A stretch of 64,000 nt of DNA from the NCBI RefSeq assembly GCF_035918095.1, contig NZ_CP109137.1, positions 3,660,001 through 3,724,000 of the forward strand, read 5' to 3'. The notes under the pieces were generated by a model. It saw only the letters and a program-made list of their open reading frames with translations. It had not been told where the DNA came from and did not search any database. Of this stretch, positions 17,838 to 35,281 are shown piece after piece. How positions within the stretch are numbered: the first letter of the stretch is position 1; each line of letters begins with the position of its first letter. The position numbers and the translations under genes were made by a program. The DNA is from Streptomyces sp. NBC_01750. GTDB lineage: Bacteria; Actinomycetota; Actinomycetes; Streptomycetales; Streptomycetaceae.

Positions 17838-19781
17838 ATGCCCATCGTCGGTTCATGGAGACGCCGCAGCCTGACCGTTGCAGCCACCGCGGTCGCCTGC
17901 TCGATGTCACTGCTCGCGCTCGCGCCGGGGGCGGCCCAGGCCGCGGAGTCCGCAACATGCTCCGCCAACGGCCTCACCTTCGTCACCAATTCGTCGGGTG
18001 ACCTTCTGCAGTACAGCATGGCCACGCCGCTGACCGGATCGACGTTCTCCGCGTACAGCAAGATCGCCACGAATTGGGGCGCCTACGGCAAGGTGCTCGC
18101 CGGTCCGGCCGGCGAGTTCTACGCCTTCAAGTCGGACGGGACCTACTACGCCCACCGCACCACGAGCGGCACGTGGGACGTCGCCCCGAAGAAGATCAGC
18201 ACCGCCCTGGGCTGGCTGGCCAACGCCGCGGACCACGACCAGGCAACCGTGGACCGCAATGGATGGCTGTGGGTATCGGACAACCTCGGCCAGTTGTACG
18301 CCTACCGGTACGACTCGACCATCGGTACCACCGGCGGCCTCCGCTCCCTCAAGGTCGTGGACAAGGGGTGGAACCGGTACAACCTGATCACCGCCGGCGA
18401 CGCCGGCGTGCTCTACGGACGTGCGGCCGACGGCAAGCTGTACCGCTCTCGTTTCGACTACACGAGCCAGCGCTGGCTCGAGCGCCACGTGCTGGTCGGC
18501 TCGGCGGCATGGGGGACCTTCAAGACGATCACAGCCGGTGGTGGTGACACCCTCCTGGCTGTGAAGACCTCGGGGGAAGCGCTGCACTACCGCTACGACG
18601 AGAACACGGACACATGGCCGGTCGTCGCGAAAGAAGTTGCCGCCGGTGGCTGGCAGAACTTCACCAATGTCACGTCACGGCCGGACAACTGCAAGCTCAC
18701 CAAGAACCACACTCCGGCGTCCCCGTCCGTCCCCCTCGAGGACTACAGCCGTACATCCGCCCTTGAGGTCTCGACTCTGGAACTGGCATACAGCGATCAG
18801 AACGGCACCTTGAAGCACGGCCGCACGGATGTGGCGAACCTGAACGGCGCACAGTGGACGACCATTTCCGGTGACGAAGCATTCTCGGGCCAGCCCGCGC
18901 TGAACGAGCTCGCCGACGGACGAGTTGTCGTGACTGCCCACACCGCCTCGGGGGGAATCCAGCAGCGCGTCCAGAAGGAGAAGGGCAGCGCCGACTGGAA
19001 CCCCTGGAAGGATCTGGGCGGTGCGATGGCGCAGCATCCAGCCAGCGCCAAGGCTCCCAGCGGCGCAGTCGCCCTGTTTTCCGTGGATGCGGGCGGCAAC
19101 GCCTGGTACCGCATCCCGCCCAAGGAGAACGAGGAATACATGGGCTGGATGCCGCTGCCTGGCTCGACTTTCTCCGGCCCCCTCACAGCTGCGACCGTAC
19201 GTGACGGTGTCCAGCTCTTCGGCAGAAACACCGCCGGGGTGCTGATCACAGCCGTGTTCAAGGAGGACGGCACGGTCTCCGCCTGGACACCTCTCGGCAC
19301 GCAGACGGTCACCGGCACCCCGTCCGTAGTCGTGTTCCCCGGCTCCCGCATCCGCGTATTCGCAACCGACGCGAATGGCACGGTCATCACGGCCGGTCAG
19401 TCCACAGAAGGCGGCGTCTTCGGCGCATGGTCCCCCCTGAACGGAGTGACGGCCGCGGGGCCCCCCAGTGCGGTGATCAACCCGCTGGACGGCTTCATCC
19501 AGGTTGTGGTCCGCGGCACGGACAACCACCTCTATGCCACGGGCGAGACGGCACCGGGAGCCGCCTCGTGGCGCACGTGGAGCACAACCGTGCCGGAGAC
19601 TCTCGCCACCGACCCCACGGCGTTCGTCTACAGCACCGGAAGCGCCGACAACTGGGCCTACGTCTTCCGCACTGCGAACAACAGCACCTTGGTTTACAGC
19701 CTGGACACACGCTCCGCGAGCGTTTCTCGATCCGCCGGCGCGCCGTCATTCGCCAGGCACGCCTACGCCGCGTCGAAGTAG
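17838..19781 (+). CDS. Secreted tachylectin-like double beta-propeller lectin 1
   Basis: Translation from the ATG at 17838 is backed by GGGGGGAA just upstream. The 647-residue protein has a signal peptide (RRRSLTVAATAVACSMS then GAAQA-AES). Residues about 40-285 form a tachylectin-2-like propeller with blade motifs such as FYAFKSDGTYYAH, GVLYGRAADGKLYRSRFDY and DTLLAVKTSGEALHYRYDE. The second half has PLL/sialidase-like blades (GQPALNELADGRVVV, GVQLFGRNTAGVLITAVF, IRVFATDANGTVI). The mature chain has two cysteines, at the start and at the domain junction, also seen in the two paralogues here. Both fold types bind sugars in known families. It is followed by a perfect inverted repeat and an epimerase gene. 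The ligand is unknown. Confidence 0.88.
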   Translation: MPIVGSWRRRSLTVAATAVACSMSLLALAPGAAQAAESATCSANGLTFVTNSSGDLLQYSMATPLTGSTFSAYSKIATNWGAYGKVLAGPAGEFYAFKSDGTYYAHRTTSGTWDVAPKKISTALGWLANAADHDQATVDRNGWLWVSDNLGQLYAYRYDSTIGTTGGLRSLKVVDKGWNRYNLITAGDAGVLYGRAADGKLYRSRFDYTSQRWLERHVLVGSAAWGTFKTITAGGGDTLLAVKTSGEALHYRYDENTDTWPVVAKEVAAGGWQNFTNVTSRPDNCKLTKNHTPASPSVPLEDYSRTSALEVSTLELAYSDQNGTLKHGRTDVANLNGAQWTTISGDEAFSGQPALNELADGRVVVTAHTASGGIQQRVQKEKGSADWNPWKDLGGAMAQHPASAKAPSGAVALFSVDAGGNAWYRIPPKENEEYMGWMPLPGSTFSGPLTAATVRDGVQLFGRNTAGVLITAVFKEDGTVSAWTPLGTQTVTGTPSVVVFPGSRIRVFATDANGTVITAGQSTEGGVFGAWSPLNGVTAAGPPSAVINPLDGFIQVVVRGTDNHLYATGETAPGAASWRTWSTTVPETLATDPTAFVYSTGSADNWAYVFRTANNSTLVYSLDTRSASVSRSAGAPSFARHAYAASK

Positions 19782-19789
19782 TCCCCCGG

Positions 19790-19821
19790 CCTGTCGGGGC
19801 GGCCCGGGCCGCCCCGACAGG
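19790..19821. terminator. Perfect 16-bp inverted repeat after lectin 1
   Basis: A 32-base perfect palindrome rich in G and C begins nine bases after the lectin stop codon. As RNA it folds into a long stem with a small CCCGGG-centred loop. No U-tract follows, as is usual for Streptomyces terminators. Confidence 0.75.
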
Positions 19822-19863
19822 TTCCGCCCATTGCAGAGACCGACATCACGAGGGGACTGCTTC

Positions 19864-21513
19864 ATGTCCAGCCGTATTCCGAGCGGGATCGACCGCCGGC
19901 GATTCATCCAGTTCGCGGGAACCGCTGCGGCGGGTATGGGTGTCGTTGGTGGCGTCGCGTCCACTGCCTCGGCTCGCGATCTCCAACCAACGCCAGTGGG
20001 GCGGGCGATACCGGGAAATCCCAGCATGCCGGTGCCGCCGCTGCCCGATCCGCTGAGGGAGGGGCGGGCAGGCGTACCACGCAGCTCGACGCGCATTCCC
20101 TACGCCAATAAGCCGCTTCGCTCGGCAAGGGTCGAAGGCGACGTCCCGACCACTCTGCCCTTCGCGTTCAAGACATCTGGATACACGTGTGCCTTAGACG
20201 TACCGGAATCCATGCAGCCGTGGCGCGACCGGGGCGCCGAGAAGGTCGACACGGCACCGCACGACGCGGAGGGGGTCCGGATGTTCGATGTGGCCGGGAA
20301 GCTGTACGACCACCCGGTCGGGCAGATCCAGTTCGGCCTGCAGAACATCACGAGTTACCGGCAGACCGGCGACGTCTTCTATCTGAACCGCGCCGCGGCT
20401 CAGGCCAAGCGTCTGATCGACAGGAGGGTGGAAGCGCGTGGCGCCTGGTACTTCCCCTACCCGTTCGACTGGACCCAAGCCGTACACACCGGCATTGCCT
20501 ACAAGGCACCCTGGTATTCCGGAATGGCTCAGGGTGAGGCTCTGAGCCTTTTCTCCCAACTGGTTGAGCTGGGTGCCGTTTCGGATGAGGAAAGCACCTC
20601 CTACAAAGCTGCAGCCGACGGCGCGTTCGCTTCACTACTGCGGGCGGACGACGCGAAGCCGTGGGTGGTGGCCAAGGACGATTCTGGATACCTCTGGATC
20701 CACGAGTACCCCATCGACTCCCCCGGTACGTCCGATTACACCTTCAACGGCTTCATGTTCGCGGCTCTGGGACTGTGGGACTACTACCAGCTCACCCGCA
20801 ACCCGCTTGCCGAACAGCTCTTCGACGGTGCGCTGACCACCGTCAACGCCTACTTCCCCGTCATGCGGAACAAGGGATGGCTCTCGCACTACTGCCGGAC
20901 CCACCAGATTCCGTCCTCCTCCTACCACCCCATCCACATCAACCTGTTGCGTCAGCTGCACTGGCTGTCCGGCAGTGTCCGCCACGCCTATCTGTCGGAC
21001 GTGCTGATGGACGACTACCCGCACCCGAGTCTGGGCCCGGCCGGCGGGACGGCGGCCTTCACCGCGGGCAGCTACACGCTCTACAAATTCGACGGCGCCG
21101 GAGAGGTGACTGCCTCCAAGGCTGTGTCCTTCGCGCGCAACACACAGGCCCCGGTGGCGGAGCGGCTGCGGATCGAGGGGCGCGGAGTGCACTACCTGAT
21201 CAACGCAGGTGCGTACGCGGGCTGGTACGTACCGGAGTTCTTCCCCAAGGTGTACCTCCTGGGGGAGTGGTTCCGGTCCGTCTACCGGCCGGAACGAACT
21301 GCCACATTCCCAGCAAACGTGAGTATCGCCTGCCAGAAGATTGACGCATACGGCACAGTCATCGGAACGAAGACGGTTGAGTTCGCCAATGACTCGAACG
21401 CCCCCTTCGACAGAAGATCCGTAGTCAATGGCCGGCCCATGGTGTACATCACAGCAGGCGGACTCTCAGGCTTCTGGGCACCGAGCTCTCAGGTGCTGAG
21501 CGACGGGCGCTGA
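19864..21513 (+). CDS. Tat-exported D-glucuronyl C5-epimerase-like protein 1 (TTA codon)
   Basis: The 549-residue protein starts at an ATG with AGGGGA upstream. A twin-arginine signal (DRRRFIQFAG, then AAAGMGVVGGVA) predicts export of a folded protein. The central region has the D-glucuronyl C5-epimerase C-terminal-domain patterns GAWYFPYPF, YKAPWYSGMAQGEALSLF, WIHEYPI and GFMFAALGLWDYY. In animals this fold converts GlcA to IdoA in heparan precursors. The last ~130 residues hold two copies of a short beta module (GRGVHYLINAGAYAGWYV and NGRPMVYITAGGLSGFWAP). Codon 111 is TTA at 20194-20196, so translation probably depends on the bldA tRNA and developmental stage. Substrate and true reaction are unknown. 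Close paralogue follows. Confidence 0.87.
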   Translation: MSSRIPSGIDRRRFIQFAGTAAAGMGVVGGVASTASARDLQPTPVGRAIPGNPSMPVPPLPDPLREGRAGVPRSSTRIPYANKPLRSARVEGDVPTTLPFAFKTSGYTCALDVPESMQPWRDRGAEKVDTAPHDAEGVRMFDVAGKLYDHPVGQIQFGLQNITSYRQTGDVFYLNRAAAQAKRLIDRRVEARGAWYFPYPFDWTQAVHTGIAYKAPWYSGMAQGEALSLFSQLVELGAVSDEESTSYKAAADGAFASLLRADDAKPWVVAKDDSGYLWIHEYPIDSPGTSDYTFNGFMFAALGLWDYYQLTRNPLAEQLFDGALTTVNAYFPVMRNKGWLSHYCRTHQIPSSSYHPIHINLLRQLHWLSGSVRHAYLSDVLMDDYPHPSLGPAGGTAAFTAGSYTLYKFDGAGEVTASKAVSFARNTQAPVAERLRIEGRGVHYLINAGAYAGWYVPEFFPKVYLLGEWFRSVYRPERTATFPANVSIACQKIDAYGTVIGTKTVEFANDSNAPFDRRSVVNGRPMVYITAGGLSGFWAPSSQVLSDGR

Positions 21514-21532
21514 CCTGCCGGTCACACTCCCT

Positions 21533-21578
21533 GTTGTTCGCGTCGGCGAGGGGACGACGTCTCGCCGACGCGAACAAC
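21533..21578. terminator. Perfect 18-bp stem hairpin between the two epimerase genes
   Basis: Arms at 21533-21550 and 21561-21578 are exact reverse complements, with a 10-base loop. It lies 19 bases after the first epimerase stop codon and about 100 bases before the second gene. It is read as a terminator separating the paralogues. A few T residues precede rather than follow the hairpin. Confidence 0.75.
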
Positions 21579-21676
21579 GGGCTTGCAGGATCGCCATGTA
21601 GGCGTCACAACTTCCGCACAGGTCGCATAAGGTCTCTCTATTCACTGATACTTGATGCCCGTGGGGGGTTTCAGTC

Positions 21677-23440
21677 ATGGCTGGAAAAAGACGTGTCGAT
21701 ATTGGCCGCAGACGCTTTATCCGTGTGGCCGGGGGCACCGTCGCCGGCGCAGCCGTGGCGGGCGGGGGGACCTTCACCGCCATGGCGACCGGGGTGTTCG
21801 AGACGCCGAAGCCGGACCCCTTCGGCGGGATGCCGAGGTCGCTCGCGCTGAGCCTGCCTGCGGCACCGGGCGGCGATACCGCGCCGCTGCCGCCGCTGCC
21901 GGACCAGATGTCCGAGGGCACTCTCTCCAAACCCGGCGCCCGGGTGGACATACCGTACGCCGACGAGCCGGTGAACCCGAAGGTCGTCGAGGACTCCGTA
22001 CCGACGGCCCTGCCGTTCGAGTTCAAGACGTCCGGCTACAAGTGCGTGACCGACCTGCCCGAGGCGCTGCGGCCGTGGCGGGACCGCCCGACGAGCTGGG
22101 CGAATGTCACGCCCAACAGCGAGCACGTGTATCTGGACAGCAAGGGCGTCGTCCAGTACCGGCCGAACAAGACTGCGGCCGGGTACGACCAGCCCGTCAC
22201 CCAGATCCAGTTCGGTCTGGGCTGCATCACCAGCTACCGCACCGAGAAGGACGCCGCCCGCAAGGCGCTCTTCCTCAAGCGCGCCAAGGCACAGGCGGAC
22301 CGTCTGATCGAGAAGCGGGTGGAGGCCCGCGGCGCCTGGTACTTCCCGTACCCCTTCAACTTCACGCACGCGGCGCACAGCGGCATCACCTACAAGGCGC
22401 CCTGGTACTCCGGCATGGCGCAGGGTGAGGCCATCAGCCTCTTCACCCAGCTCTCCCAGCTCGACGGGCTCACCGAGCAGGAGCGCACGCTCTACAAGGC
22501 GGCCGCCGACGGAGCCTTCGCCTCGCTGCTGCGCGCCGACGACGCCAAGCCGTGGGCGGTGAACAAGGACAAGAACGGGTACCTGTGGATACAGGAGTAT
22601 CCGATCAACGCCCCGGGCACCTCGGACTACACCTACAACGGCATGATCTTCGCCATGTTCGGCATCTGGGACTACTTCCAGGCAACCGGCAATCCGCTGG
22701 CGGAGCAGCTGTACGACGGTTCGCTCACCACGATCCGTGACCACTTCCCCCGGCTGCGGAACACCCGCTGGTTCTCGTACTACTGCGACACCCACCGGAT
22801 ACCCGCGCCGACCTACCACCAGCACCACATCAACCTGCTGCGGCAGCTGCACTGGCAGACCGGCAGCCCCACCATCGCCAACCGGCACGACCAGCTGATC
22901 GACGACTTCCCGGCGTACGGCCTGCGCTCGGGCTCCGTCGCGGCCATCGCCGCCGGCACGCACACCCTCTACAAGCTCGACACCCTCGGCGCGGCGGACA
23001 GCTTCGGCTGGTCCTCCTCGAAGGCAGACAAGCAGCTGGCCACGAAGAAGGTGACCTTCTCCAAGGCCACCCAGGCGCCGGTCAACGTACGCCGCCGCAT
23101 CATGGGCCGCGGCATCTACTACCGCATCAACGCCGGTGCGTACGCGGGCTGGTGGATCGGCGAGGCGTTCCCGAAGGCCTTCCTGCGCGGTGAGTACGTC
23201 TCCACCACCTACCTCCCGCAGCGCACCGCGACCTTCCCCGCCAATGTGGAAGTCACCTGCGTCAAGTTCGGCACCGACGGGACGACCGGCTCCACCAAGA
23301 CGGTGAAGTTCGCCAAGGAGTCCAACGCCCCCTTCGACCGCAGGGCCGTCGTGAACGGCAGGCCCATGGTCCGGATCACCGCCGGCGGACTGAACGGGTA
23401 CTGGGCACCCACCGCCCAGGTACTCACCGACGGGCGCTGA
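21677..23440 (+). CDS. Tat-exported D-glucuronyl C5-epimerase-like protein 2
   Basis: This 587-residue paralogue of the preceding gene starts at an ATG with a GTGGGGGG stretch upstream. The twin-arginine signal is GRRRFIRVAGG followed by a long Ala/Gly hydrophobic segment. The epimerase-domain patterns are all present (GAWYFPYPF, YKAPWYSGMAQGEAISLF, WIQEYPI, GMIFAMFGIWDYFQ), as are the two C-terminal beta modules (GRGIYYRINAGAYAGWWI and NGRPMVRITAGGLNGYWAP). It lacks the TTA codon of its neighbour, so it should not share bldA dependence. It is more GC-rich than copy 1, hinting at different ages or sources. Two epimerases may act on different glycans or positions. That is speculation. Confidence 0.88.
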   Translation: MAGKRRVDIGRRRFIRVAGGTVAGAAVAGGGTFTAMATGVFETPKPDPFGGMPRSLALSLPAAPGGDTAPLPPLPDQMSEGTLSKPGARVDIPYADEPVNPKVVEDSVPTALPFEFKTSGYKCVTDLPEALRPWRDRPTSWANVTPNSEHVYLDSKGVVQYRPNKTAAGYDQPVTQIQFGLGCITSYRTEKDAARKALFLKRAKAQADRLIEKRVEARGAWYFPYPFNFTHAAHSGITYKAPWYSGMAQGEAISLFTQLSQLDGLTEQERTLYKAAADGAFASLLRADDAKPWAVNKDKNGYLWIQEYPINAPGTSDYTYNGMIFAMFGIWDYFQATGNPLAEQLYDGSLTTIRDHFPRLRNTRWFSYYCDTHRIPAPTYHQHHINLLRQLHWQTGSPTIANRHDQLIDDFPAYGLRSGSVAAIAAGTHTLYKLDTLGAADSFGWSSSKADKQLATKKVTFSKATQAPVNVRRRIMGRGIYYRINAGAYAGWWIGEAFPKAFLRGEYVSTTYLPQRTATFPANVEVTCVKFGTDGTTGSTKTVKFAKESNAPFDRRAVVNGRPMVRITAGGLNGYWAPTAQVLTDGR

Positions 23441-23867: not shown

Positions 23868-25763
23868 ATGACATACAACTTGCATCACAGACCCCGCCGA
23901 CTGACGGTGGTGGCCACGGCCGCAGCCGCAGCCCTGCCACTGCTCATCGCGCTTCCCGGCACCGCACAGGCCGCCGACGCGGCGAGCTGCGTCGCGGGCG
24001 GACCAACGCACGCGGTGAACAGCGCGGGGTCGCTGCTCCAGTACAAGCTGAAGTCACCGATCGACGGGGCCGGTGGCTACGTCAACCCCACCACCATCGG
24101 CTCCAGTTGGAACCTCTACCCGCTGGTGCTCTCCGGCCCGCACGGGAAGTTCTACCTGTTCAAGGCGGACGGCACGTACTACGGCCGGCGGGACAACGCC
24201 ACCGGCACCTGGCCCGTGAGCGTCAGGAAGATCACCAGCGACTTCGGCTGGCTGGCGGACGCGGCGGACCGCAACCAGGTCACCGTCGACCGGTCCGGAC
24301 GGATGTGGGTCCTGCTCAACAACGGCCAGCTGAACCTGTACCAGTACGACGGTTCCGGCGACGTCTGGAACGCCGCCTCCACCGGTGGCGTGGTCGACAC
24401 GGGCTGGAACCGCTACGACCTGATCACCGCGGCCGACGACGGCGTGATCTACGGTCGTTCGGCGACCGACGGCAAGCTCTACCGCTCCCGCTACGACGCC
24501 ACCAGCCAGCGCTGGACCGAGCGCCATGTGGAGGTGAGCACGAGCGACTGGCGCCAGTTCAAGTCGCTCAGCTCCAACGGCGGCGACACCCTGCTGGCGG
24601 TGAAGACCACCGGCGAGGCGTACTACTACCGCTTCGACGAGAACAACCGGACCTGGCCGGTGAACAGGGTCCAGGTCGGCACCTCGGGCTGGCAGAACCT
24701 GCTCAGCGTCTCCGCCGCGCCCGACAGCTGCAAGATCCTGGCCGGTCACACGCCCGCGGCACCCGCGCGCGCTCAGGAGACGTACACCCGCGCCTCGGTG
24801 ATGCAATCCTCGACCGGATCGCTGGAGATCGCGTACACGGACAACATCGGCCGTCTGGTGCACGGCCGGATGAAGGACGCGTCCAACATCAACGACGTGC
24901 AGTGGACGACGCTCTCCGGTAACGAGAACGCCTTCACCGGGCAGCCGTCGCTGGCCGAGCACACCGACGGCCGGGTGGTCGTCAGCGCGCACAACACCTC
25001 CGGCAGTGTCTGGCAGCGCAACCAGACCGCCAAGTCCGCTGCGGACTGGGGCAGCTGGACCGACCTCGCGGGCGCGATGGCGCAGCAGGCCGTCACCGCC
25101 AAGACCCCGTCCGGGCTGTTGGCGCAGTTCGCCGCGGACAAGGACGGGAAGCCCTGGTACCGCCTCCAGGCCGCGGCCAACGGCAGCTTCAAGGGCTGGA
25201 TGCCCCTGGCCGGCACCGGCTTCACCGGCCCCTTCACGACCGTGGTCGTGCAGGACGGAATCCAGCTCTTCGGCAAGGACGCCTCCGGCCTGCTGAACAC
25301 CGCCCTCTTCAAGGACGACGGCACCCTGTCGGCCTGGACCCCGCTGGGCGCGCAGGCGATCACCGGCACCCCGGCCCCGGTCGTCTACCCCGGCTACCGC
25401 ATCCGCGTCTTCGCCACCGACCCGAACGGCACTGTGGTGAGCACCACCCAGTCCACCGCGGGCGGGGCGTACGGCGACTGGACCCCGGTCGGCGACCTGA
25501 CGGCCAAGGGCTCTCCGAGCGCGGTGATCTCCCCGCTCAACGGCATCACCGAGATCGTCGTCCGCGGCGCCGACGACACCATCTACAGCACCGGTGAGAC
25601 CACTCAGGGCAGCGGAGCCTGGCGCACCTGGAGGTCGGTGAGCGTCGAGACCGCGGCGACCGAGCCCACGGCCTTCGCGTACACCAACGCGAGCGGCCCG
25701 ACCTGGGCCTACTCCTTCCGTACGGCCGACAACCAGACCCGTATCTACCAGGTCCAGCAGTGA
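23868..25763 (+). CDS. Secreted tachylectin-like double beta-propeller lectin 2
   Basis: The 631-residue paralogue has a signal peptide (HHRPRRLTVVATAAAAALPLL to TAQA-ADA). An N-terminal tachylectin-like propeller follows (FYLFKADGTYYGRRD, GVIYGRSATDGKLYRSRYD, TLLAVKTTGEAYYYRFDE). The second, PLL-like propeller has GQPSLAEHTDGRVVVSAH, GIQLFGKDASGLLNTALF and IRVFATDPNGTVV. The paired cysteines are conserved (ASCVAGG and PDSCKIL). It is closer to lectin 3 than to lectin 1 in the second half (TDNIGRLVHGRM and GSVWQRNQTAKS are shared). It is the last plus-strand gene before the GT2/GtrA pair and ends at a palindromic terminator shared with it. No catalytic residues are apparent, so binding is the likely role. 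Confidence 0.88.
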   Translation: MTYNLHHRPRRLTVVATAAAAALPLLIALPGTAQAADAASCVAGGPTHAVNSAGSLLQYKLKSPIDGAGGYVNPTTIGSSWNLYPLVLSGPHGKFYLFKADGTYYGRRDNATGTWPVSVRKITSDFGWLADAADRNQVTVDRSGRMWVLLNNGQLNLYQYDGSGDVWNAASTGGVVDTGWNRYDLITAADDGVIYGRSATDGKLYRSRYDATSQRWTERHVEVSTSDWRQFKSLSSNGGDTLLAVKTTGEAYYYRFDENNRTWPVNRVQVGTSGWQNLLSVSAAPDSCKILAGHTPAAPARAQETYTRASVMQSSTGSLEIAYTDNIGRLVHGRMKDASNINDVQWTTLSGNENAFTGQPSLAEHTDGRVVVSAHNTSGSVWQRNQTAKSAADWGSWTDLAGAMAQQAVTAKTPSGLLAQFAADKDGKPWYRLQAAANGSFKGWMPLAGTGFTGPFTTVVVQDGIQLFGKDASGLLNTALFKDDGTLSAWTPLGAQAITGTPAPVVYPGYRIRVFATDPNGTVVSTTQSTAGGAYGDWTPVGDLTAKGSPSAVISPLNGITEIVVRGADDTIYSTGETTQGSGAWRTWRSVSVETAATEPTAFAYTNASGPTWAYSFRTADNQTRIYQVQQ

Positions 25764-25769
25764 CGACTC

Positions 25770-25793
25770 GGGGGCGGCCGGCCGGCCGCCCCC
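25770..25793. terminator. Bidirectional terminator between lectin 2 and the GtrA gene
   Basis: A perfect 24-base G/C palindrome sits seven bases after the lectin 2 stop and 17 bases beyond the end of the convergent GtrA-family gene. Its position lets it stop transcription from both sides. Confidence 0.78.
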
Positions 25794-25809
25794 GTGAGTC
25801 CGGCCCGCA

Positions 25810-27327: not shown

Positions 27328-29742
27328 ATGTCGACTCTGCAATCCGCGCGCGGCCGCGCCGCCGCCCTCGCCGCGCTGATCACCGTGGGGACCGTGTGCG
27401 GCGGTGACGCCGTCGCCCGCAGCTTCCCCTTCGGACCGCACACCCGCAGCGTGAACGACCTCGGCAATCAGTTTGTGCCGTTCCATGCCCATCTGTGGGA
27501 TCTGCTGCATGGCCGTGCGGACGGTGGGCTGCTGCTCAACTGGCAGTCCGGCTACGGAACCAGCTTCCTTCCCGACCTCGGGACCTATCTGACCAGCCCG
27601 TTCTCCCTGCTGGTCGGGCTCTTCCCGCGGGACGAGATCGATCTCGCCGTCTATGTGGTCACACTGCTGAAGATGGCGGCGGCGGCCGCTGCCATGACCT
27701 GGCTGCTGTTCTCCCTGCACCAGGGCGGACGCTGGTGGATGGCGGCGGTGCTCGGCGGCTCGTACGCACTGTGCGGTTGGTCGGTCGTCGAGGCCTCGTA
27801 CAACCCCATGTGGATGGACGGCCTGGTCGCCTTCCCCCTGCTGTGCCTGGCCGGCGAGTGGGCGCGCACGGCACGGCGGCCGCTGCTCGGCCCGTTGATC
27901 GTCGCGGTGGCGTGGATCGCCAACTTCTACACCGCCTACATGGCGACCATCGGGGCCGCACTGGTGCTCGCGGTGCGGCTGCTGACGGCGGATACGGACG
28001 CACGGGAGCGGATGCGGGCGCTGCTGCGGGCCACCCGGACCGTGCTGCTCGGTATCGCGCTGGCAGGGCCCGTGCTCATCCCCGTCTTCCTCGGTTCCCA
28101 GCACGCCTATCCGGGGTGGACGAGGCAGTTCTCGCCGGCCGGCTGGGCCGATGTGTTCGCGCGGACGCTGCCCGCGACGTACAGCTTCTTCACTCCCGCC
28201 GTCTTCCTGGGCAGCGGTGCGCTGCTGCTGGCGTGCACGCTCGCCTTCAACGGCGCCGTCCCGCGGCGCGAGCGCTGGGTGTGGACCGGTCTTGCCGTGT
28301 CGGTCGCGCTCTCCCTCCAGTGGGGGCCGACCCATCTGGTGTGGCATGTCTTCGCGACGCCCAACGGCAGCCCGTACCGGCAGACCTTCGTCTTCGCCGG
28401 AATCCTGGTGATCGCCGCCTGGATCTGTCTCTCCTCCGACTGGCCGGGGCGGCGTGCCCTGCTCGGCGGCGGCGCCGTGGTCACGGCGACCGCGCTCGCC
28501 GGCGCCACCAGTGAGCTGGTCACCGTCTGGACGCTTCTGCTGTTCGCGGCCGGGTTCGCGGCGGTCGTCGGCGGTCTGCTCCTGGCCGGCCGTGGCACAT
28601 ACACCGTCCTCGCCGCGCTGCTGCTCAGCGGCACGCTGGTCGGCCAGGCCGCGGCGACCACCGCATACGCCGACCGGATGAAGCTCGGCAGGCTGGACGA
28701 CTACCCGGCCTGGGGCGAGCCCCACAGCGAGCGCGCGGCGGCGGTGGCGAAGGCCGACGGCTGGCCGCGCTACCGCACCGACCCCGGCCGCGACCAGATC
28801 ACCGGGAACGATCCGGTCCTGCTGGGCGGCCAGGGCGGCCAGTACTACAGCAGCCACACCCCGGATGTGTACACGCGCACGCTGGCCGCACTCGGCGCGG
28901 GCTGGACGTCCAACGGCCGCAGTGTGCAGTCCCTCGACAACCCGGTCACGGACGCGATCTTCGCCGTCGGAGCACGGGTGCGCACCGCTCCCGGGAAGCA
29001 CCCGGAGGCGACCCGGGCCGAGCAGGTGCCGCCGCTGGTGACCGTGCGGCCGCCCGGGGCCGAGCCGCGGTACGACTGGAACCCCTTCCGCAACCAGGAG
29101 CGGCTGCTCGGCTCCGCGGTCTACGACACCCCCGCCGGTGGCTCCTGCCCGGTCGGCAGCGAGGTCTTCCTCTGGGCACCCGACTACACCGGCAGGGCAA
29201 GGCTCGGCGACTCGCCGTGGGTGACGCTGCGCGGCGGACAGCCGAAGCGGCGTGCCGCGCTCACGTCGCTCGGGACGGTGAACTCGCCGGGCGAGAAGGT
29301 CGGTTACAGCAAGGACCCCCACCGCACGACGCTCGGCTGTCTGGACCGGGCGAAGCTGACCGCCGCCGTGGACCGGCTGAAGAGGACCGGCGCGCTCTCG
29401 GTCGAGGTGTCCGACAGCGGCGTACGGGCAGAGCTCCCGCCCGGCACCAAGGGGACTGCTGTCCTCGCCGCGACCCGGATCGCGGGCTGGACCTGCAACG
29501 GCAAGCCGGCCGGCTCCCACCTGGGGCTCGTCGCCGTACCGCTGGACGGCTCCACGACACGGGTGGACTGCTCCTTCCGCCCTCCCGGCCTGAAGGCGGG
29601 TGCGGCGATGGGATCCACGGGCCTGCTGGGGCTCGTACTGATGGCGTTGCTGCCCGGGGTCCGCAAGCGGTCGCGCCGCGCCCCGGAAGCCGCAGACACC
29701 ACCAGCGACACGAACAACAGCCAACTACAGAAGTCACACTGA
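27328..29742 (+). CDS. YfhO-family multipass membrane protein
   Basis: The 804-residue protein starts at an ATG at 27328. It has a long N-terminal region with about a dozen hydrophobic helices to about residue 460 (VGTVCGGDAVA, GSYALCGWSVVEASYNPMWMDG, FYTAYMATIGAALVLAV). A roughly 300-residue extracytoplasmic part and one last helix (GSTGLLGLVLMALLP) plus a basic end follow. The early NDLGNQFVPFHAHLWD and GTSFLPDLGTYLTSP patterns match the YfhO family. Members belong to the GT-C-like membrane glycosyltransferases linked to glycosylation of teichoic-type polymers. Together with the divergent GtrB/GtrA pair this forms a plausible three-component system that decorates a surface polymer outside the membrane. 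Confidence 0.85.
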   Translation: MSTLQSARGRAAALAALITVGTVCGGDAVARSFPFGPHTRSVNDLGNQFVPFHAHLWDLLHGRADGGLLLNWQSGYGTSFLPDLGTYLTSPFSLLVGLFPRDEIDLAVYVVTLLKMAAAAAAMTWLLFSLHQGGRWWMAAVLGGSYALCGWSVVEASYNPMWMDGLVAFPLLCLAGEWARTARRPLLGPLIVAVAWIANFYTAYMATIGAALVLAVRLLTADTDARERMRALLRATRTVLLGIALAGPVLIPVFLGSQHAYPGWTRQFSPAGWADVFARTLPATYSFFTPAVFLGSGALLLACTLAFNGAVPRRERWVWTGLAVSVALSLQWGPTHLVWHVFATPNGSPYRQTFVFAGILVIAAWICLSSDWPGRRALLGGGAVVTATALAGATSELVTVWTLLLFAAGFAAVVGGLLLAGRGTYTVLAALLLSGTLVGQAAATTAYADRMKLGRLDDYPAWGEPHSERAAAVAKADGWPRYRTDPGRDQITGNDPVLLGGQGGQYYSSHTPDVYTRTLAALGAGWTSNGRSVQSLDNPVTDAIFAVGARVRTAPGKHPEATRAEQVPPLVTVRPPGAEPRYDWNPFRNQERLLGSAVYDTPAGGSCPVGSEVFLWAPDYTGRARLGDSPWVTLRGGQPKRRAALTSLGTVNSPGEKVGYSKDPHRTTLGCLDRAKLTAAVDRLKRTGALSVEVSDSGVRAELPPGTKGTAVLAATRIAGWTCNGKPAGSHLGLVAVPLDGSTTRVDCSFRPPGLKAGAAMGSTGLLGLVLMALLPGVRKRSRRAPEAADTTSDTNNSQLQKSH

Positions 29743-29829
29743 CTGTTCATCAACTCGTGAGCTTGCAAGGGATCTTGTTCATCTGAGGGCCACCGCACCG
29801 TTCACCATTCGACGCCTAACGTCCAGCCC

Positions 29830-31797
29830 ATGACGAGGATTTCACCGCGTGCTCACATAAGACGCACTGCCCTGACCGCAGCCCTTGCCGTCGCCGTTCC
29901 CGTGCTCGTGGCGCTGCCCGCCGGAACCGCCCAGGCGGCCAACGCGCCGGTGACCTGCACCACCACCGGCCCGACGTACACGCTGGACCCGGCGGGCAAG
30001 CTGTACCGGCAGGACATGCCGACGCCCATGACGGGCGCCGCGCTGCCGAACGGGAGCGTCATCGACTCCACCTGGACCGGCTACGGCCAGATGATGGCGG
30101 GCCCGGCCGCCACCTTCTACGGGATCAAGTCGGACGGCCTCTACTACTCCCATCGCATCAGCGCCTCGGCGACCTGGGACGTCCACCACAAGAAGATCAG
30201 CTCCGGCTTCACGGAGTTCAAGGCCGCGGGCAAGACCGATGAGATCACCATCGACCGCGGCGGCTACATCTGGACGCTGGCGGGCTCCACCGGCGGACTG
30301 CGCTGGTACAAGTACGACGCCGCTGCCGGGGACTTCATCACCGGCAGCGGAAAGATCGTCGACATGGGCTGGGACCGCTACGACGCGATCTACGCCGCCG
30401 ACAAGGGCGTGATCTACGGCCGCTCGGCGACCGACGGCAAGCTCTACCGCTCCCGCTACGACGTGACCAGCCAGCGCTGGATCGAGCGGCATGTCCTGGA
30501 GTCCGCGGCCGACTGGAGCGACTCCAAGACGATCACCTCCTTCGGCGGCGACACGCTCTTCCGTGTCAAGGGCAACGGCGCGGTCACGTACTACCGCTTC
30601 GACGAGGGCATCCGCGACTTCCCGGTCTACAACAAGCAGCTCGAGGCGAGCGGCTGGGCCGCGTTCACGTCGGTGTCCGGCGCGCCCGACGCCTGCCGGA
30701 TCGATGTCAACCACACCCCGGCCTCGCCGTCCGTGCCGCTGGAGAACTACAGCCGGGCCTCGGTGATGCAGTCCTCGGCCGGCTCCCTGGAGCTGGCGTA
30801 CACCGACAACATCGGCCGTCTCGTGCACGGCCGGATGGGCGATCCGAACGACATCAACGGCGTCCAGTGGACGACCATCTCCGGCAACGAGGCGTTCTCC
30901 GGGCAACCGACGCTGGCCGAGCACACCGACGGACGCGTGGTCGTCACCGGGCACAACACCTCCGGCAGCGTCTGGCAGCGCAACCAGACCGCCAAGTCCG
31001 GTGCGGACTGGGGCAACTGGATCGATCTCGCGGGCGCGATGGCGCAGCACGCCGTCACCGCCAGGACCCCGTCCGGTCTCCTGGTGCAGTTCTCCGCGGA
31101 CGCGGACGGCAAGCCCTGGTACCGCATCCAGCAGCGTGCCAACGTGGACTTCATGGGCTGGACACCGCTCGCGGGCTCCGGCTTCACCGGTCCCTTCACC
31201 GCCGTGACCGTACGGGACGGCATCCAGCTCTTCGGCAAGAACGCCTCCGGGGTCCTGAGCACCGCGCTGTTCAAGGAGGCCGGTTCGCTCTCCTCCTGGT
31301 CGTCGCTGGGCGCGCAGGCCGTCACCGGCACGCCGACCGTGGTCATCTACCCCGGCTACCGTCTCCGCGTCTTCGCCACGGACGGTCTCGGCAAGGTGGT
31401 GACCACGGCCCAGTCCGCCGAGGGCAGCACCTACGGCGAGTGGAGCACCGTCGAGGGGCTCACCGCCAACGGCTCCCCCAGCGCCGTGATCTCCCCGCTC
31501 ACCGGACTCACCGAGATCGTCGTACGCGGCGAGGACGGCTACACCTACAACACGGGTGAGACTGTCCAGGGCAGCGGCACCTGGCGCACCTGGCAGCAGG
31601 CCTCCTTCGAGGCCTCCGCCACCGAGCCCACCGCGTTCACCTACACCAACGCGACCGGCCCGACCTGGGCGTACTCCTTCCGTACGGCCGACAACCAGAC
31701 CCGCGTCTACCAGGTGCAGCAGACCTCGTCGCTGAGCGCGATGCGCGCCGGGGACAAGGCACCGGCCTTCACCGGCCGCGCGCTGCCCCGCCCGTAA
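29830..31797 (+). CDS. Secreted tachylectin-like double beta-propeller lectin 3
   Basis: The start is the ATG at 29830. The 655-residue protein has a signal peptide (RRTALTAALAVAVPVLVALPAG, ending TAQA-ANA). Propeller one shows FYGIKSDGLYYSHRI, GVIYGRSATDGKLYRSRYD and TLFRVKGNGAVTYYRFDE. Propeller two shows GQPTLAEHTDGRVVVTGH, GIQLFGKNASGVLSTALF and LRVFATDGLGKVV. The two-cysteine pattern is kept (VTCTTTG and PDACRID). Compared with lectin 2 it has a C-terminal extension of about 22 residues (SSLSAMRAGDKAPAF) after the QVYQVQQ-like end. It lies between the YfhO-like gene and the sialidase and ends before a strong hairpin. Ligand unknown; a sugar on the local glycan is the natural guess. Confidence 0.88.
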   Translation: MTRISPRAHIRRTALTAALAVAVPVLVALPAGTAQAANAPVTCTTTGPTYTLDPAGKLYRQDMPTPMTGAALPNGSVIDSTWTGYGQMMAGPAATFYGIKSDGLYYSHRISASATWDVHHKKISSGFTEFKAAGKTDEITIDRGGYIWTLAGSTGGLRWYKYDAAAGDFITGSGKIVDMGWDRYDAIYAADKGVIYGRSATDGKLYRSRYDVTSQRWIERHVLESAADWSDSKTITSFGGDTLFRVKGNGAVTYYRFDEGIRDFPVYNKQLEASGWAAFTSVSGAPDACRIDVNHTPASPSVPLENYSRASVMQSSAGSLELAYTDNIGRLVHGRMGDPNDINGVQWTTISGNEAFSGQPTLAEHTDGRVVVTGHNTSGSVWQRNQTAKSGADWGNWIDLAGAMAQHAVTARTPSGLLVQFSADADGKPWYRIQQRANVDFMGWTPLAGSGFTGPFTAVTVRDGIQLFGKNASGVLSTALFKEAGSLSSWSSLGAQAVTGTPTVVIYPGYRLRVFATDGLGKVVTTAQSAEGSTYGEWSTVEGLTANGSPSAVISPLTGLTEIVVRGEDGYTYNTGETVQGSGTWRTWQQASFEASATEPTAFTYTNATGPTWAYSFRTADNQTRVYQVQQTSSLSAMRAGDKAPAFTGRALPRP

Positions 31798-31814
31798 ACG
31801 GCACACGACACCTA

Positions 31815-31847
31815 CCGCCGTCCGGTCCCGCAAGGACCGGACGGCGG
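31815..31847. terminator. Strong hairpin between lectin 3 and the sialidase
   Basis: Exact 14-bp arms (31815-31828 and 31834-31847) enclose a CGCAA loop. It begins 17 bases after the lectin 3 stop codon and ends only eight bases before the assigned sialidase start. It should end lectin transcription. If read through, the same stem would sit over the sialidase ribosome-binding region. Confidence 0.85.
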
Positions 31848-31855
31848 TCGGCGTT

Positions 31856-34800
31856 GTGCCCGAGGCCATAACGAGAAAGGCCCGAAATCCCTTGGCCCAC
31901 ATACGAACCCGGCTCAGAACCGCCCTGGTGGGGCTGAGCCTTCTGCTCGCGGCCACCGCCGCCCCTTCGGTCACCGCACCACCCGCCGCCGCCAGCGGCA
32001 CCCAGAAATCCGCCGACGCCCTGACCGGCACCGAGCAGATCCTCTTCCGCTCCGGTACCGCGGGCTACGGCTGCTTCCGCATCCCCTCCCTCGTACGCAC
32101 CAAGGCCGGCACGCTCCTCGCCTTCGCCGAGGGCCGCAAGTCCCCCTCGTGCGCCGACCGCGGTGCCATCGACATCGTGGTCCGCCGCTCCACCAACGAG
32201 GGGCGCACCTGGGGCCCGGTGCGCGTGGCGCTCTCCGGCAGCGAGAGCGACCGGGAGGCTCCGTACACCAGGGGCAACGCCTCGCCCGTCGCCGACGGGA
32301 CGACCGGGGAGGTCTTCCTGCTCTCCACCTCGGAGCCGGCCACCGCCGAGCCCGGCGGCAAGCGTCTGCCGTGGCTGCAGCGCAGCACGGACGACGGTCT
32401 CAGCTTCGATACTCCGGTGCCACTGCCGCGGTTCAGCGGCGGGGACGTGGGCTGGTACGGCACGGGGCCCGCGCACGGCATCCAGCTGCGCAACGGCCCC
32501 GCCAAGGGCCGGCTGGTGGTCGGCGCGTACGAGAGTCCCACGTCCCATTCGCAGTACGTCGGCCTCATCTACAGCGACGACCACGGCGCTCACTGGAAGA
32601 CCAGCGAAACCGCCGACTCCTTCGAGAAGGACGTACTGCTGCCGGGCGAGCCGGCCGTCGCCGAACTCGACGACGGCGGTGTCTACATCGCCGCCCGGAA
32701 CAACACCGACGCAGGACACCGCAGCCATGCGGTCAGCACCGACGGCGGTGTCACCGTCCCCGCGCAGCGACTCGTGCCCGGCCTGGTCACCCCCCAGGTG
32801 CAGGGCTCCGTGCTCGCGTTGCGGCAGACCTACCGGAGTGTGCCCGGCGACACGCTCGTCTTCGCCGCTCCCTCCCACGCCACCGACCGGCAGTCCATGC
32901 GCATCCGTTACTCGACGGACCGCGGTGCCACCTGGCGCGACGCGTCCGGCGGCCTGATCAACAACAAGCGCGCGGGCTACTCGGACATGGCCGAGCTCGG
33001 TGACGGACAGCTCGGGCTCGTCTACGAGGGAGGCACCGACTTCTCCGCCGCGAACATCTACTTCAACCGCTTCACGCCCGGCTCGGTCGGCGTGCCGGGC
33101 ACCTTCACCGGCTCGCCGAATCCGCAGCCGTCGCCGGCCGCCGGCCGCACCACGCCCGACTCCGGTCCCGAGGCGAACGACGCTTATCTGGGCGGCAGTT
33201 CGGCGCTCGGCGCCGGGCGCTTCGGCCAGGGCCTGGCGCTGGACGGAACGGGCGACTTCGCCGATCTCCCCTACACCCCGTCCCTCGATCCGGGTGCGGG
33301 TGATGTCACATACTCGTTCTTCTTCCGGTACTCGGCGACCGCGAGCAGCCCGCAGCAGGCGCTGATGTGGGCGTACGGATTCGGCACGGGCAAGCCGCAG
33401 CTGTGGATCCGCGCGCAGCCCGCCCAGGACCGGATCCTGGCCCTCGCGGAGACCGCCGCGGGCTCGGTGCAGATACCGCTGCCCGACGCCGGGACCTCGA
33501 CTGCGTACGGCGACGGTGCCTGGCACCAGCTGTCGCTGGTGCGCTCCGCCGACCAGATCCGTATCTCCGTGGACGGCAGGATCCCCGCCATCGCGACCGG
33601 GGTCACCGGCTCGCTGACCGACACCCGCGCCAAGGGCGTCGACGGTATCCGTCTCGGTGCCAAGCCGGACGCGGGCGCCGGCGAGTACTTCACCGGCTCG
33701 ATCGACGAATTCCGGGTCCACCGGACAGTCCTCACCGACGCTCAGCTGGATGCGCTGCGCACGGCGAACAGCGCGCGGGACGCGGAGGCCGCCCAGTCCG
33801 TCCGGCTGGCCTTCCAGGTCGCCGACACCGCCGACGTGCCCGCGCTGACGTCGGTCGGCGTCGAGGACGATGTCTCCGGGCACTGCGCCGACGGCACCCT
33901 CCTCGGCGGACTGCCCGACGAGGACGCGGGCCGGATCGGCAAGGGCGCGATCGGCGTCTCGGCCACCCGGCCCGGTGTCGAGACGCCGTACGTCCCCACC
34001 CTCGATGTCGGGGCGGACGACTTCACCTACACGCTGTGGTTCTCGCACTCGGCGACCGCGTCGACCCCGAACTCGGCGCTGCTGTGGGCCTACGGCTCCA
34101 CGTCCGGGCAGCCTGCCCTGTGGGTGCGCGCCCAGCCCGCCCAGGACCGGCTGTTCGCCTGGGCGGAAACCGCGGCGGGGCCCGTCCAGATCGCTCTGCC
34201 CGACCCCGGGACCTCGGTCGCCTACGGCGACGGCACATGGCATCTGCTGGCCGTCAGCCGCAGCGGCGACCGGCTGCGGCTGAGCGTGGACGGGGCCCCC
34301 GCCACCGAGGCTGCCGGTCTGTCCGGGTCCCTGACCAGCGCCGCGAATCCGGAGGGGGTCCGGGTCGGGTCCAAGCCGGGCAGTCTCGACATCCTCACCG
34401 GCCGTCTCGACGACGTCCGGCTCTACCGGCGCGCCCTCACGGAAGCCGAGTTGAAGAAGGTGACCGGATCCGCGGCGGGTTCGGCCGGCGGCTATCCGGC
34501 CGACCCGCCCGCGCTGTGGTGGTCGATGGAGGCCGGCAACACCGAGGTCCACTCGGTCGCACGGCCGGCGTCCGGGCCCGCGACGCCCGACTCCTCCGTC
34601 CACTGCAGCCACGCCTATGTCCGGGGCGGTGCACTGCCCTCGTCCTGGTCGGGCGGGGGCAGGTTCGGCTCCGGGCTGCCGCTCGACGGCACGGACGACA
34701 GCGTCGAACTGCCCTATGGCTCCGACAAGGCGCTGGGCGGCGGCGACTTCACGGTCGCGACTTGGCTCAAGTACACCGCCGGCCCCACAACCGGCAGCCA

Positions 34801-35281
34801 GGTCATCCTGTGGTCGTACGGGGTGGGTGGCGCGGAACGGCAGTTGTGGCTGCGGGCCCAGCCCTCCCAGGACCGGCTCACCGCACTCCTCCAGACGGAC
34901 ACCGCCACGGTCCAGCTGTACGGGGCCGACAGCGGCAGCGCGTCCGGTTTCGGCGACGGCGCCTGGCACCATGTCGCACTCGAGCGCTCCGGCGGTCTGC
35001 TGTCCCTCTCGGTGGACGGCAAGCTGCTGGACGACGCTCCGGTGCCGGCCGGCTCGGTGACGTACGGGGACAGCTTCGCGGTGTCCGGGATCCAGCTGGG
35101 CACGCGGCCGGACGGCGTGGAACGGTTCAAGGGCTCCCTGGACGAATTCCGTCTCGTGCGGCGGGCATTGACCGATCAGGAGCTGACCGCGCTGCGGTCG
35201 TCGAACGCGGACACCGGGACGGCCACCACCGTCCGGCTGCCCTTCGACACGCTGTCACCGCAGGGGCACGCCCGGATGTGA
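31856..35281 (+). CDS. Secreted exo-sialidase (GH33-like) with three LamG domains
   Basis: The 1141-residue protein starts at a GTG at 31856, close behind a hairpin. The start is slightly uncertain, with no clear ribosome site. A signal peptide (TRLRTALVGLSLLLAATAAP) precedes a six-bladed sialidase domain (~55-420) with the FRIPSLV arginine motif, CADRGAIDIVV and several Asp-box motifs (STNEGRTWG, SDDHGAHWK, STDRGATWR). GYSDMAELGDGQLGLVYEGG also fits. Three concanavalin/LamG-like domains follow (~445-640, 650-865, 880-1125), each with a WAYG/WSYG, LWxRAQP-QDR and DGxWH signature. The enzyme should release terminal sialic-type sugars outside the cell, and the LamG repeats may anchor it to glycan. 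It converges on the kinase gene with only 13 bp between. Confidence 0.9.
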   Translation: MPEAITRKARNPLAHIRTRLRTALVGLSLLLAATAAPSVTAPPAAASGTQKSADALTGTEQILFRSGTAGYGCFRIPSLVRTKAGTLLAFAEGRKSPSCADRGAIDIVVRRSTNEGRTWGPVRVALSGSESDREAPYTRGNASPVADGTTGEVFLLSTSEPATAEPGGKRLPWLQRSTDDGLSFDTPVPLPRFSGGDVGWYGTGPAHGIQLRNGPAKGRLVVGAYESPTSHSQYVGLIYSDDHGAHWKTSETADSFEKDVLLPGEPAVAELDDGGVYIAARNNTDAGHRSHAVSTDGGVTVPAQRLVPGLVTPQVQGSVLALRQTYRSVPGDTLVFAAPSHATDRQSMRIRYSTDRGATWRDASGGLINNKRAGYSDMAELGDGQLGLVYEGGTDFSAANIYFNRFTPGSVGVPGTFTGSPNPQPSPAAGRTTPDSGPEANDAYLGGSSALGAGRFGQGLALDGTGDFADLPYTPSLDPGAGDVTYSFFFRYSATASSPQQALMWAYGFGTGKPQLWIRAQPAQDRILALAETAAGSVQIPLPDAGTSTAYGDGAWHQLSLVRSADQIRISVDGRIPAIATGVTGSLTDTRAKGVDGIRLGAKPDAGAGEYFTGSIDEFRVHRTVLTDAQLDALRTANSARDAEAAQSVRLAFQVADTADVPALTSVGVEDDVSGHCADGTLLGGLPDEDAGRIGKGAIGVSATRPGVETPYVPTLDVGADDFTYTLWFSHSATASTPNSALLWAYGSTSGQPALWVRAQPAQDRLFAWAETAAGPVQIALPDPGTSVAYGDGTWHLLAVSRSGDRLRLSVDGAPATEAAGLSGSLTSAANPEGVRVGSKPGSLDILTGRLDDVRLYRRALTEAELKKVTGSAAGSAGGYPADPPALWWSMEAGNTEVHSVARPASGPATPDSSVHCSHAYVRGGALPSSWSGGGRFGSGLPLDGTDDSVELPYGSDKALGGGDFTVATWLKYTAGPTTGSQVILWSYGVGGAERQLWLRAQPSQDRLTALLQTDTATVQLYGADSGSASGFGDGAWHHVALERSGGLLSLSVDGKLLDDAPVPAGSVTYGDSFAVSGIQLGTRPDGVERFKGSLDEFRLVRRALTDQELTALRSSNADTGTATTVRLPFDTLSPQGHARM

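What the first reader, a model, noticed from the sequence alone, without database searches (positions are those of the whole stretch)
17838..35281. Extracellular uronic-glycan module: three lectins, two Tat C5-epimerases, GtrB/GtrA/YfhO-like membrane proteins and a LamG sialidase
Within 17.5 kb, every gene encodes a secreted or membrane protein that handles polysaccharide. GT2/GtrA/YfhO sets glycosylate surface polymers. Glucuronyl C5-epimerases act on uronic-acid chains (GlcA to IdoA in heparan-type glycans). Tachylectin and PLL-like propellers bind sugars. The sialidase trims ends. A coherent inference is a Streptomyces surface or matrix glycan carrying uronic acids that are epimerised after export. 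I know of no described bacterial system with this set.
Basis: partly seen in the sequence, partly recalled or inferred. Interest (0 to 1): 0.8.

Follow-up and report, generated by a model that had tools for sequence, protein, structure and literature searches.

The report
Wall-glycan epimerases inside a toxin–lectin island
A Streptomyces genome carries sugar-flipping enzymes beside a giant toxin-like protein and its sugar-binding partners, and comparison with other genomes suggests that these enzymes remodel a cell-wall sugar polymer that such toxins, and perhaps phages, use to recognise a cell.

The parts
7982..17659 (-). Giant polymorphic-toxin protein (3225 aa): RHS repeats, LamG domain, pretoxin HINT domain, short C-terminal tip with CxxC...DH...CxxC (nuclease-like by eye only). 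Outside the stated interval.
   Evidence: Pfam RHS_repeat E 4.6e-97, PT-HINT 2.2e-19, Laminin_G_3 1.2e-14; homologues 45-78% identical divergently beside the lectin in L186, L187, L189, L190, L192, L193, L194
17838..19781 (+). Lectin 1: tachylectin protein with a PLL-like second half (647 aa), signal peptide by eye
   Evidence: PF14517 E 1.9e-23; divergent from the RHS gene as in 7 of 7 stand-alone full-length homologue loci
19864..21513 (+). C5-epimerase 1 (Tat motif DRRRFIQ)
   Evidence: PF06662 E 9.4e-19; catalytic columns invariant; groups with L006, L078, L086 (100/100)
21677..23440 (+). C5-epimerase 2 (587 aa, Tat motif GRRRFIR)
23868..25763 (+). Lectin 2: tachylectin + PLL-like propeller protein (631 aa), signal peptide by eye
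   Evidence: PF14517 E 4.8e-26; PDB lectins PHL/PLL2 E 2.3e-23 and 4.2e-23, tachylectin-2 E 7e-5; 41% and 47% identical to the lectin region of the UmbA-like proteins of L188, L191
25810..26229 (-). GtrA-like membrane protein; conserved backbone
   Evidence: PF04138 E 5.2e-21; in 6 of 6 loci L206-L211
26226..27266 (-). GT2 (GtrB-like by gene order); conserved backbone
   Evidence: PF00535 E 2.9e-34; found by tblastn in 5 of 6 backbone loci, not in L209
27328..29742 (+). YfhO-like membrane protein; conserved backbone
   Evidence: PF09586 E 3.2e-68; homologues in 160 of 392 Streptomyces
29830..31797 (+). Lectin 3: tachylectin protein with a PLL-like second half (655 aa), between YfhO and the kinase
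   Evidence: PF14517 E 6.7e-19; backbone comparison
31856..35281 (+). BNR sialidase-like protein with three LamG domains, signal peptide by eye
   Evidence: BNR_2 1.5e-21, Laminin_G_3 9.1e-50; sialidase 1eur E 6e-27; lectin-sialidase order kept in L190, L193 at 67-70% identity
35295..37511 (-). Ser/Thr protein kinase: first backbone gene right of the island
   Evidence: Pkinase 2.2e-46; on the far side of YfhO from GtrA in 6 of 6 loci L206-L211
7498..7995 (-). Small protein directly downstream of the RHS gene; candidate immunity gene (position only)
   Evidence: ORF and translation; no test of function
576..1877 (-). Orphan HINT toxin cassette with a different C-terminal tip
   Evidence: translation close to the RHS HINT region, then diverges; matches HINT parts of other toxins

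Best explanation
The region is an accessory polymorphic-toxin island placed around a conserved GtrA-GT2-YfhO/kinase backbone. Its toxin part is a giant RHS-HINT protein with separately encoded tachylectin-PLL lectins and a LamG sialidase. The two Tat proteins are C5-epimerases that, after export, invert C5 of diacetamido-uronic acids (ManNAc3NAcA to L-GulNAc3NAcA, or GlcNAc3NAcA to L-IdoNAc3NAcA) in the producer's own wall teichuronic acid. This changes the shape of a receptor glycan, so the producer is less readily bound by lectin-guided toxins (its own or a rival's) and by phages. Shown here: gene content, catalytic residues, predicted fold, genus-wide confinement to genomes with the TUA marker, and repeated placement in TUA, umbrella, RHS and phage-tail loci. 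Inferred: the substrate, the reaction in vivo, the protective effect, and that these lectins guide the RHS protein.
Against: No biochemistry: no TUA with an L-Gul or L-Ido diacetamido-uronic acid is known to me (recall). Species are not independent, so the P values overstate. The marker query came from an epimerase-bearing genome, and the markers closest to it are rich in epimerase genomes, so part of the link is clade structure. One gene stands for TUA; in G229 that gene lies about 15 kb from a shorter epimerase in what looks like another polysaccharide cluster. G110 has the same shorter type. Two TUA-positive genomes with the RHS-lectin pair (G340, G376) have no epimerase match, so protection is not obligatory. 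RHS-lectin pairs also occur in marker-negative genomes (G028, G060, G105, G181, G241). Eight of 35 loci, and four of four Glycomyces loci scored, show no TUA, toxin or phage neighbour. The ligand of the lectins is unknown.
Confidence: 0.55

Rival explanations
1. The enzymes are teichuronic-acid lyases or depolymerases that start with the same C5 proton abstraction but end in beta-elimination; the phage copies open a path through the wall polymer.
For: Phage copies lie between tail genes and the endolysin gene and lack a Tat motif, as a virion depolymerase would.
Against: The full GLCE catalytic set is kept in host and phage copies, the model is closer to GLCE than to any other fold listed (50 entries shown), and enzymes that degraded the host's own polymer would be odd at its biosynthetic cluster (13 of 35 loci).
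Confidence: 0.15
2. The enzymes are secreted to act on the TUA of neighbouring target cells, turning it into the form that the island's lectins bind.
For: Placement beside lectin/toxin genes; phage copies must act on a host's glycan.
Against: It would not require the producer to make TUA, yet 18 of 18 have the marker, and 13 of 35 loci sit at the producer's own TUA cluster.
Confidence: 0.12
3. One reading: one exported GlcA-containing glycan system in which Gtr/YfhO builds, epimerases make IdoA, and lectins and sialidase handle the product.
For: All gene families present.
Against: Gtr/YfhO is independent backbone; lectin and epimerase families do not co-occur; the linked pathway predicts diacetamido-uronic acids.
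Confidence: 0.05
4. Hot-spot accretion: epimerases and toxin genes share an insertion-prone site with no functional link; only the TUA link is real.
For: The island interrupts a conserved backbone; an orphan toxin cassette lies nearby.
Against: The epimerase-toxin pairing recurs at different sites with different toxin types (umbrella 7, RHS genes or pieces 11 of 35), twice in this genome (window and L005). Among 20 loci of mostly weaker tachylectin matches, 0 had an RHS match, 1 a UmbC match and 2 a GalE plus weak FG-GAP match.
Confidence: 0.2

Closest known systems
D-glucuronyl C5-epimerase (GLCE; PF06662; human 6HZZ, zebrafish 4PW2)
   Different: Bacterial proteins with Tat motifs, and phage copies; linked to teichuronic acid rather than heparosan; a beta-rich C-terminal region (model) outside the aligned part.
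Bermanella marisrubri C5-epimerase, called the only identified bacterial one in PMC13308652 (passages read)
   Same: Bacterial member of the GLCE type, per that paper.
   Different: Shown active on O-desulfated heparin; no TUA or toxin context in the passages seen. Not compared by sequence here.
Streptomyces teichuronic acid (utr) system, Zhao et al. 2025, PMC13274773 (abstract, passages, sections 9, 10, 13, 14 read)
   Same: The window genome carries a gene set of the same functions and place (near rplU); epimerase genes lie at this cluster in 13 of 35 loci.
   Different: The passages and sections seen name nucleotide-sugar epimerases only; the strings glucuronyl, iduron and guluron do not occur in the held main text.
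Umbrella toxins UmbA/UmbB/UmbC (PMC11062931, passages; PMC13274773)
   Same: Toxin with separately encoded propeller lectins; tachylectin-PLL regions 41% and 47% identical are the lectin of two UmbA-like proteins; epimerases beside Umb genes in 7 of 35 loci.
   Different: The window lectins lack the trypsin-like domain, and the toxin protein is RHS, not ALF-repeat.
RHS/WapA polymorphic toxins (PMC3482391, search listing only)
   Same: RHS repeats, HINT pretoxin domain, differing tips, an orphan cassette.
   Different: Recurring divergent pairing with a tachylectin-PLL lectin, and C5-epimerases alongside.

Membership tests
GLCE-type C5-epimerase (PF06662) | C5-epim_C domain over curated cut-off | tested here: met
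   68.1 and 76.1 bits against 23.3
GLCE-type C5-epimerase (PF06662) | Catalytic E499, Y500, N510, Y560, Y578 (human numbering) | tested here: met
   E307, Y308, N321, Y369, Y380 in 31 of 31 rows; mapping read from the HMMER alignment
GLCE-type C5-epimerase (PF06662) | Fold | tested here: met
GLCE-type C5-epimerase (PF06662) | Epimerises GlcA in a heparosan-like chain | not testable with these tools
   Context points to TUA instead; needs biochemistry
Umbrella toxin | UmbA: trypsin-like domain plus lectin | tested here: not met
   Window lectins give only Tachylectin in Pfam; L188 and L191 give Trypsin plus Tachylectin
Umbrella toxin | UmbC with ALF repeats | tested here: not met
   Window toxin gives RHS repeats, no ALF. 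For the rest of the genome the ALF search found 0 but had no positive control: inconclusive there
Umbrella toxin | UmbB adaptor | tested here: inconclusive
   tblastn (E <= 1e-8) of two UmbB-like proteins gave no match in window, L005 or L006; divergent adaptors could be missed
RHS polymorphic toxin | RHS repeats | tested here: met
   PF05593 E 4.6e-97
RHS polymorphic toxin | Processing domain with variable tip and orphan cassettes | tested here: met
   PT-HINT E 2.2e-19; orphan at 576-1877 with another tip
RHS polymorphic toxin | Cognate immunity protein | tested here: inconclusive
   Small ORF at 7498-7995 by position only
utr-type teichuronic acid producer (window genome) | Genes for UDP-ManNAc3NAcA and TUA assembly | tested here: met
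   utrD 92%, utrH 86%, utrJ 88%, utrE 82%, utrC and two GTs on L103/L104 by homology to other genomes' clusters. utrA: best PDB match a scyllo-inositol transaminase, WbpE E 4.5e-67; utrB: NF040723 below its cut-off; utrJ: 3mqg E 8e-45. The utr names are by function and order; S. griseus sequences were not compared
utr-type teichuronic acid producer (window genome) | TUA present in the wall | not testable with these tools
   Needs wall chemistry

The most novel reading that the evidence does not exclude
Post-assembly C5 epimerisation of wall teichuronic acid is a receptor-editing (stealth) device shared by three parties of one arms race: producers of lectin-guided umbrella and RHS toxins, strains that keep it inside the TUA cluster itself, and temperate phages that carry it in their tail/lysis cassette. 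The giant RHS proteins with divergent tachylectin-PLL partners are a second, umbrella-like class of lectin-guided diffusible toxins.
Probability: 0.35. Interest if true: 0.88.

Novelty: new variant of a known kind. Interest (0 to 1): 0.74.

Why it matters
Teichuronic acid was reported in 2025 as a receptor for umbrella toxins, and that paper proposes that differences in TUA structure may explain how a producer avoids adsorbing its own particles (PMC13274773, section 10). An exported enzyme family that could invert the uronic acid of that polymer, confined in my sample to genomes with the polymer's marker gene and often placed beside the toxins, makes the idea directly testable by gene deletion and NMR. 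Phage copies of the same enzyme would be a new kind of phage tool against wall glycans. It would also extend C5-epimerases from heparin-like chains to bacterial walls.

Tried and rejected
Heparan-type GlcA polymer: no UDP-GlcA/heparosan cluster was sought directly; context pointed elsewhere. GT2/GtrA/YfhO as part of the system: rejected, conserved without the island and not positively linked to epimerases or TUA (TUA 19 of 74, expected 30). YfhO is over-represented with tachylectins (46 of 72, expected 29.4, P 1e-5), which I read as shared clade or insertion site; not followed up.

Phage records: INPHARED gave one weak match (Bradyrhizobium phage, 29%). The viral structure library gave no convincing match (three matches at E <= 0.001, TM-score by model length at most 0.28 in the 50 rows shown). 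Pfam on the C-terminal region of four epimerases gave nothing of note. My GC-frame gene caller missed the RHS giants; tblastn corrected this. The label 'HINT-cassette' for L110 is in truth an RHS N-terminal piece of 243 aa at the contig end. RHS matches in L077 (524 aa) and L117 (369 aa, C-terminal cassette) are pieces too. The tree (30 rows) left out L096 (same as L073), L099 (not called), the broken first copy in L081, and L070/L071 (not matched). G073 and G251 epimerase loci were not fetched. Of the 71 other genomes with a tachylectin match, 31 had a locus fetched. Class-level scan: 14 of 207 with PF06662, 11 of them outside Streptomyces (one, G500, under the cut-off; without it 7 of 10, P 4e-4).

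Counting rule for the 35 loci: window, L005, L006, L072-L089, L109-L117, L126-L128, L131 and L145; records seen twice (L108, L119, L120, L122, L125, L129, L130) counted once, told by equal contig length; L070, L071 and Glycomyces L118, L121, L123, L124 left out. Those four Glycomyces loci had none of the contexts. More distant loci (the rest of L132-L185) were not scored.
Full report
What was claimed and what is there. From left to right: lectin 1, epimerase 1, epimerase 2, lectin 2 (all +), GtrA and GT2 (-), YfhO, lectin 3 and a LamG sialidase (+). Each lectin has a Tachylectin domain. Lectin 2 was shown to continue as a PLL-type propeller, and lectins 1 and 3 look alike by eye. The interval stops just short of a 3225-aa RHS/PT-HINT protein at 7982-17659 (-), which turned out to matter most for the lectins.

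The set is not one module. In 392 Streptomyces genomes PF06662 has a match in 18 (17 over the cut-off) and PF14517 in 72, and only the window's genome has both (expected overlap 3.3). YfhO homologues (E <= 1e-100) occur in 160 genomes and in 5 of the 18 with epimerases. I fetched six of the seven genomes with the closest YfhO homologues (L206-L211; G006 not fetched). All six have GtrA, YfhO and, beyond YfhO, the same kinase as the window, with no lectin, RHS, sialidase or epimerase match; GT2 was not found in L209. An ORF of 270-322 aa lies between YfhO and the kinase in four of them (L206, L207, L208, L211); L209 has several genes there and L210 none. In the window lectin 3 and the sialidase lie at that place, and the RHS-to-lectin 2 block lies on the other side of GtrA. 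G028 (L189) has a kinase piece, GtrA, a lectin and the RHS gene together. So the island was laid around a conserved backbone.

The lectin partner is a toxin-like protein. I fetched 11 loci from the genomes with the best PF14517 matches (G299 and G007, of similar rank, came in the second batch). Seven have a stand-alone full-length lectin, and all seven have a homologue of the RHS giant directly beside it and divergent: L186 46%, L187 45%, L189 76% (contig end), L190 75%, L192 78%, L193 77%, L194 59% identity. The lectins of L186 and L187 are only 27-29% identical to lectin 2. In L190 and L193 the sialidase follows the lectin, as lectin 3 and the sialidase do in the window. Two of the other four (L188, L191) have the lectin region fused to a trypsin-like domain, the UmbA architecture, and L191 has a UmbB-like gene next door. 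The last two (L195, L196) carry other tachylectin proteins beside TUA genes. Twenty further loci of mostly weaker PF14517 matches showed no RHS (0 of 20).

Where the epimerase genes live. Around them in other Streptomyces one cluster recurs, near rplU-obg: nucleotide-sugar dehydrogenase (TIGR03026 over cut-off), wecB-type 2-epimerase (TIGR00236 over cut-off), hexapeptide acetyltransferase, GalE (TIGR01179 over cut-off), a GT with a TarS linker, a TarI-like gene and further GTs. In the window genome the acetyltransferase matches 3mqg (E 8e-45) and the aminotransferase matches WbpE (E 4.5e-67) though a scyllo-inositol transaminase scores higher; the oxidoreductase matches a UDP-GlcNAc 3-dehydrogenase model below its cut-off. 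This is the gene content that Zhao et al. 2025 describe for utr (PMC13274773; abstract, passages and sections 9, 10, 13, 14 read). That paper reports TUA polymers with ManNAc3NAcA or GlcNAc3NAcA as umbrella-toxin receptors; its pathway is predicted too. The window genome has the cluster at C1:3046001-3068700 without an epimerase in it.

The statistical link. Taking the dehydrogenase (utrD; E <= 1e-100) as marker, 74 of 392 Streptomyces are positive, and all 18 epimerase genomes are among them (P 1.4e-14). For the 10 whose epimerase was not seen inside the cluster (two of them not fetched) it is 10 of 10; leaving out G110, G229 and G251 too, 7 of 7. Tachylectin genomes show no such link, 12 of 72. 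In a class-wide draw, outside Streptomyces, 7 of 11 epimerase genomes carry the marker against 36 of 190 overall. A Micromonospora (L132) and an Ornithinibacter MAG (L136) have an epimerase beside TUA genes. Species relatedness is not corrected for, and a single gene stands for the polymer.

The toxin link. In 35 distinct loci (counting rule under Tried and rejected), scored by tblastn with L110 corrected: TUA cluster 13, umbrella genes 7, RHS genes or pieces 11, prophage 1, none 8; categories overlap. The window genome shows the pattern twice. At L005 an RHS-like gene (38% over 1602 aa to the L084 toxin) is divergent from a 1465-aa protein whose C-terminal part is 62% identical to a UmbA lectin region, followed by the epimerase 88% identical to epimerase 2. 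L110 (Streptomyces sp. A012304) has the start of an RHS gene, a tachylectin-PLL lectin, and two epimerases in the TUA cluster. L074 and L079 hold UmbA, UmbC (ALF repeats) and UmbB-like genes beside one and two epimerases.

The phage link. Seven viral contigs, one of them the prophage of S. wuyuanensis (L096 = L073/L130), encode a version without Tat motif, 470-477 aa where complete (517 aa from the first start in L100; L099 and L102 are cut by contig ends). In L096, L097, L098 and, by eye, L100 it lies between tail genes and an amidase/endolysin gene; PHROGs names the flanks tape measure, minor tail and endolysin in the three tested, L096-L098. The phage clade is supported 100/100 and lies near the umbrella-linked host enzymes (that grouping 83/63; with the copy of L076, 100/100).

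How it most likely works. Tat exports the folded enzyme. It acts on TUA already assembled, as GLCE acts on polymer, and inverts C5 of the diacetamido-uronic acid. The altered ring changes recognition by propeller lectins. That the producer has the TUA marker in 18 of 18 cases argues for self-modification over action on targets. The phage copies then act on the same polymer, either to pass it or to stop re-adsorption; position favours a virion or lysis role, which a lyase would also explain. Counter-evidence: G340 and G376 have the marker and the RHS-lectin pair but no epimerase match, five genomes have the pair without the marker, and eight loci have no such neighbours.

Novelty. No paper in the held library contains both 'teichuronic acid' and 'C5-epimerase', and the held main text of PMC13274773 contains none of glucuronyl, tachylectin, iduron, guluron or rhs. 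Of the 12 papers listed for the RHS/tachylectin search none held 'tachylectin'; 194 papers held two of the three terms and the rest were not seen. Supplementary tables and figures were not available, so epimerase genes may be drawn in that paper's Figure 3C.

Noticed in passing
window 576-1877 (-): Orphan HINT toxin cassette close to the C-terminal part of the RHS giant but with another tip; a related cassette (67% to the RHS giant) lies beside the TUA/epimerase cluster in L117.
   Followed up: partly
window 57904-62187 (-): A second RHS protein (1427 aa), 46% identical over 1135 aa to the T7SS-signal RHS protein that lies beside an epimerase in L075.
   Followed up: no
L005 (G000:C1:3150001-3170000): Second RHS / UmbA-type lectin / epimerase locus in the same genome, followed by ROK regulator, transporter, GH4 and BadF-type genes.
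   Followed up: partly
L070, L071: Short epimerases (open frames about 364 aa) in two genomes, among glycosyltransferase-like genes; they score best to the Pfam model and may be GLCE-like enzymes of another polymer. Tat motif not tested.
   Followed up: no
L195, L196: Tachylectin proteins of 673-691 aa without obvious signal peptide beside TUA genes (utrA and utrJ, with utrD or utrB).
   Followed up: no
L190, L193, window 31856-35281: Conserved pair of tachylectin-PLL lectin and LamG sialidase, next to the RHS giant in L190 and L193; sialidase substrate unknown.
   Followed up: partly
L081 7623-9397: One of two epimerase copies in this TUA cluster is interrupted (one search lists one stop inside); left as it is.
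   Followed up: no
window 37562-39763 and 40830-41618: N-6 DNA methylase and GmrSD-type HNH protein in the backbone right of the island, possible defence genes.
   Followed up: no
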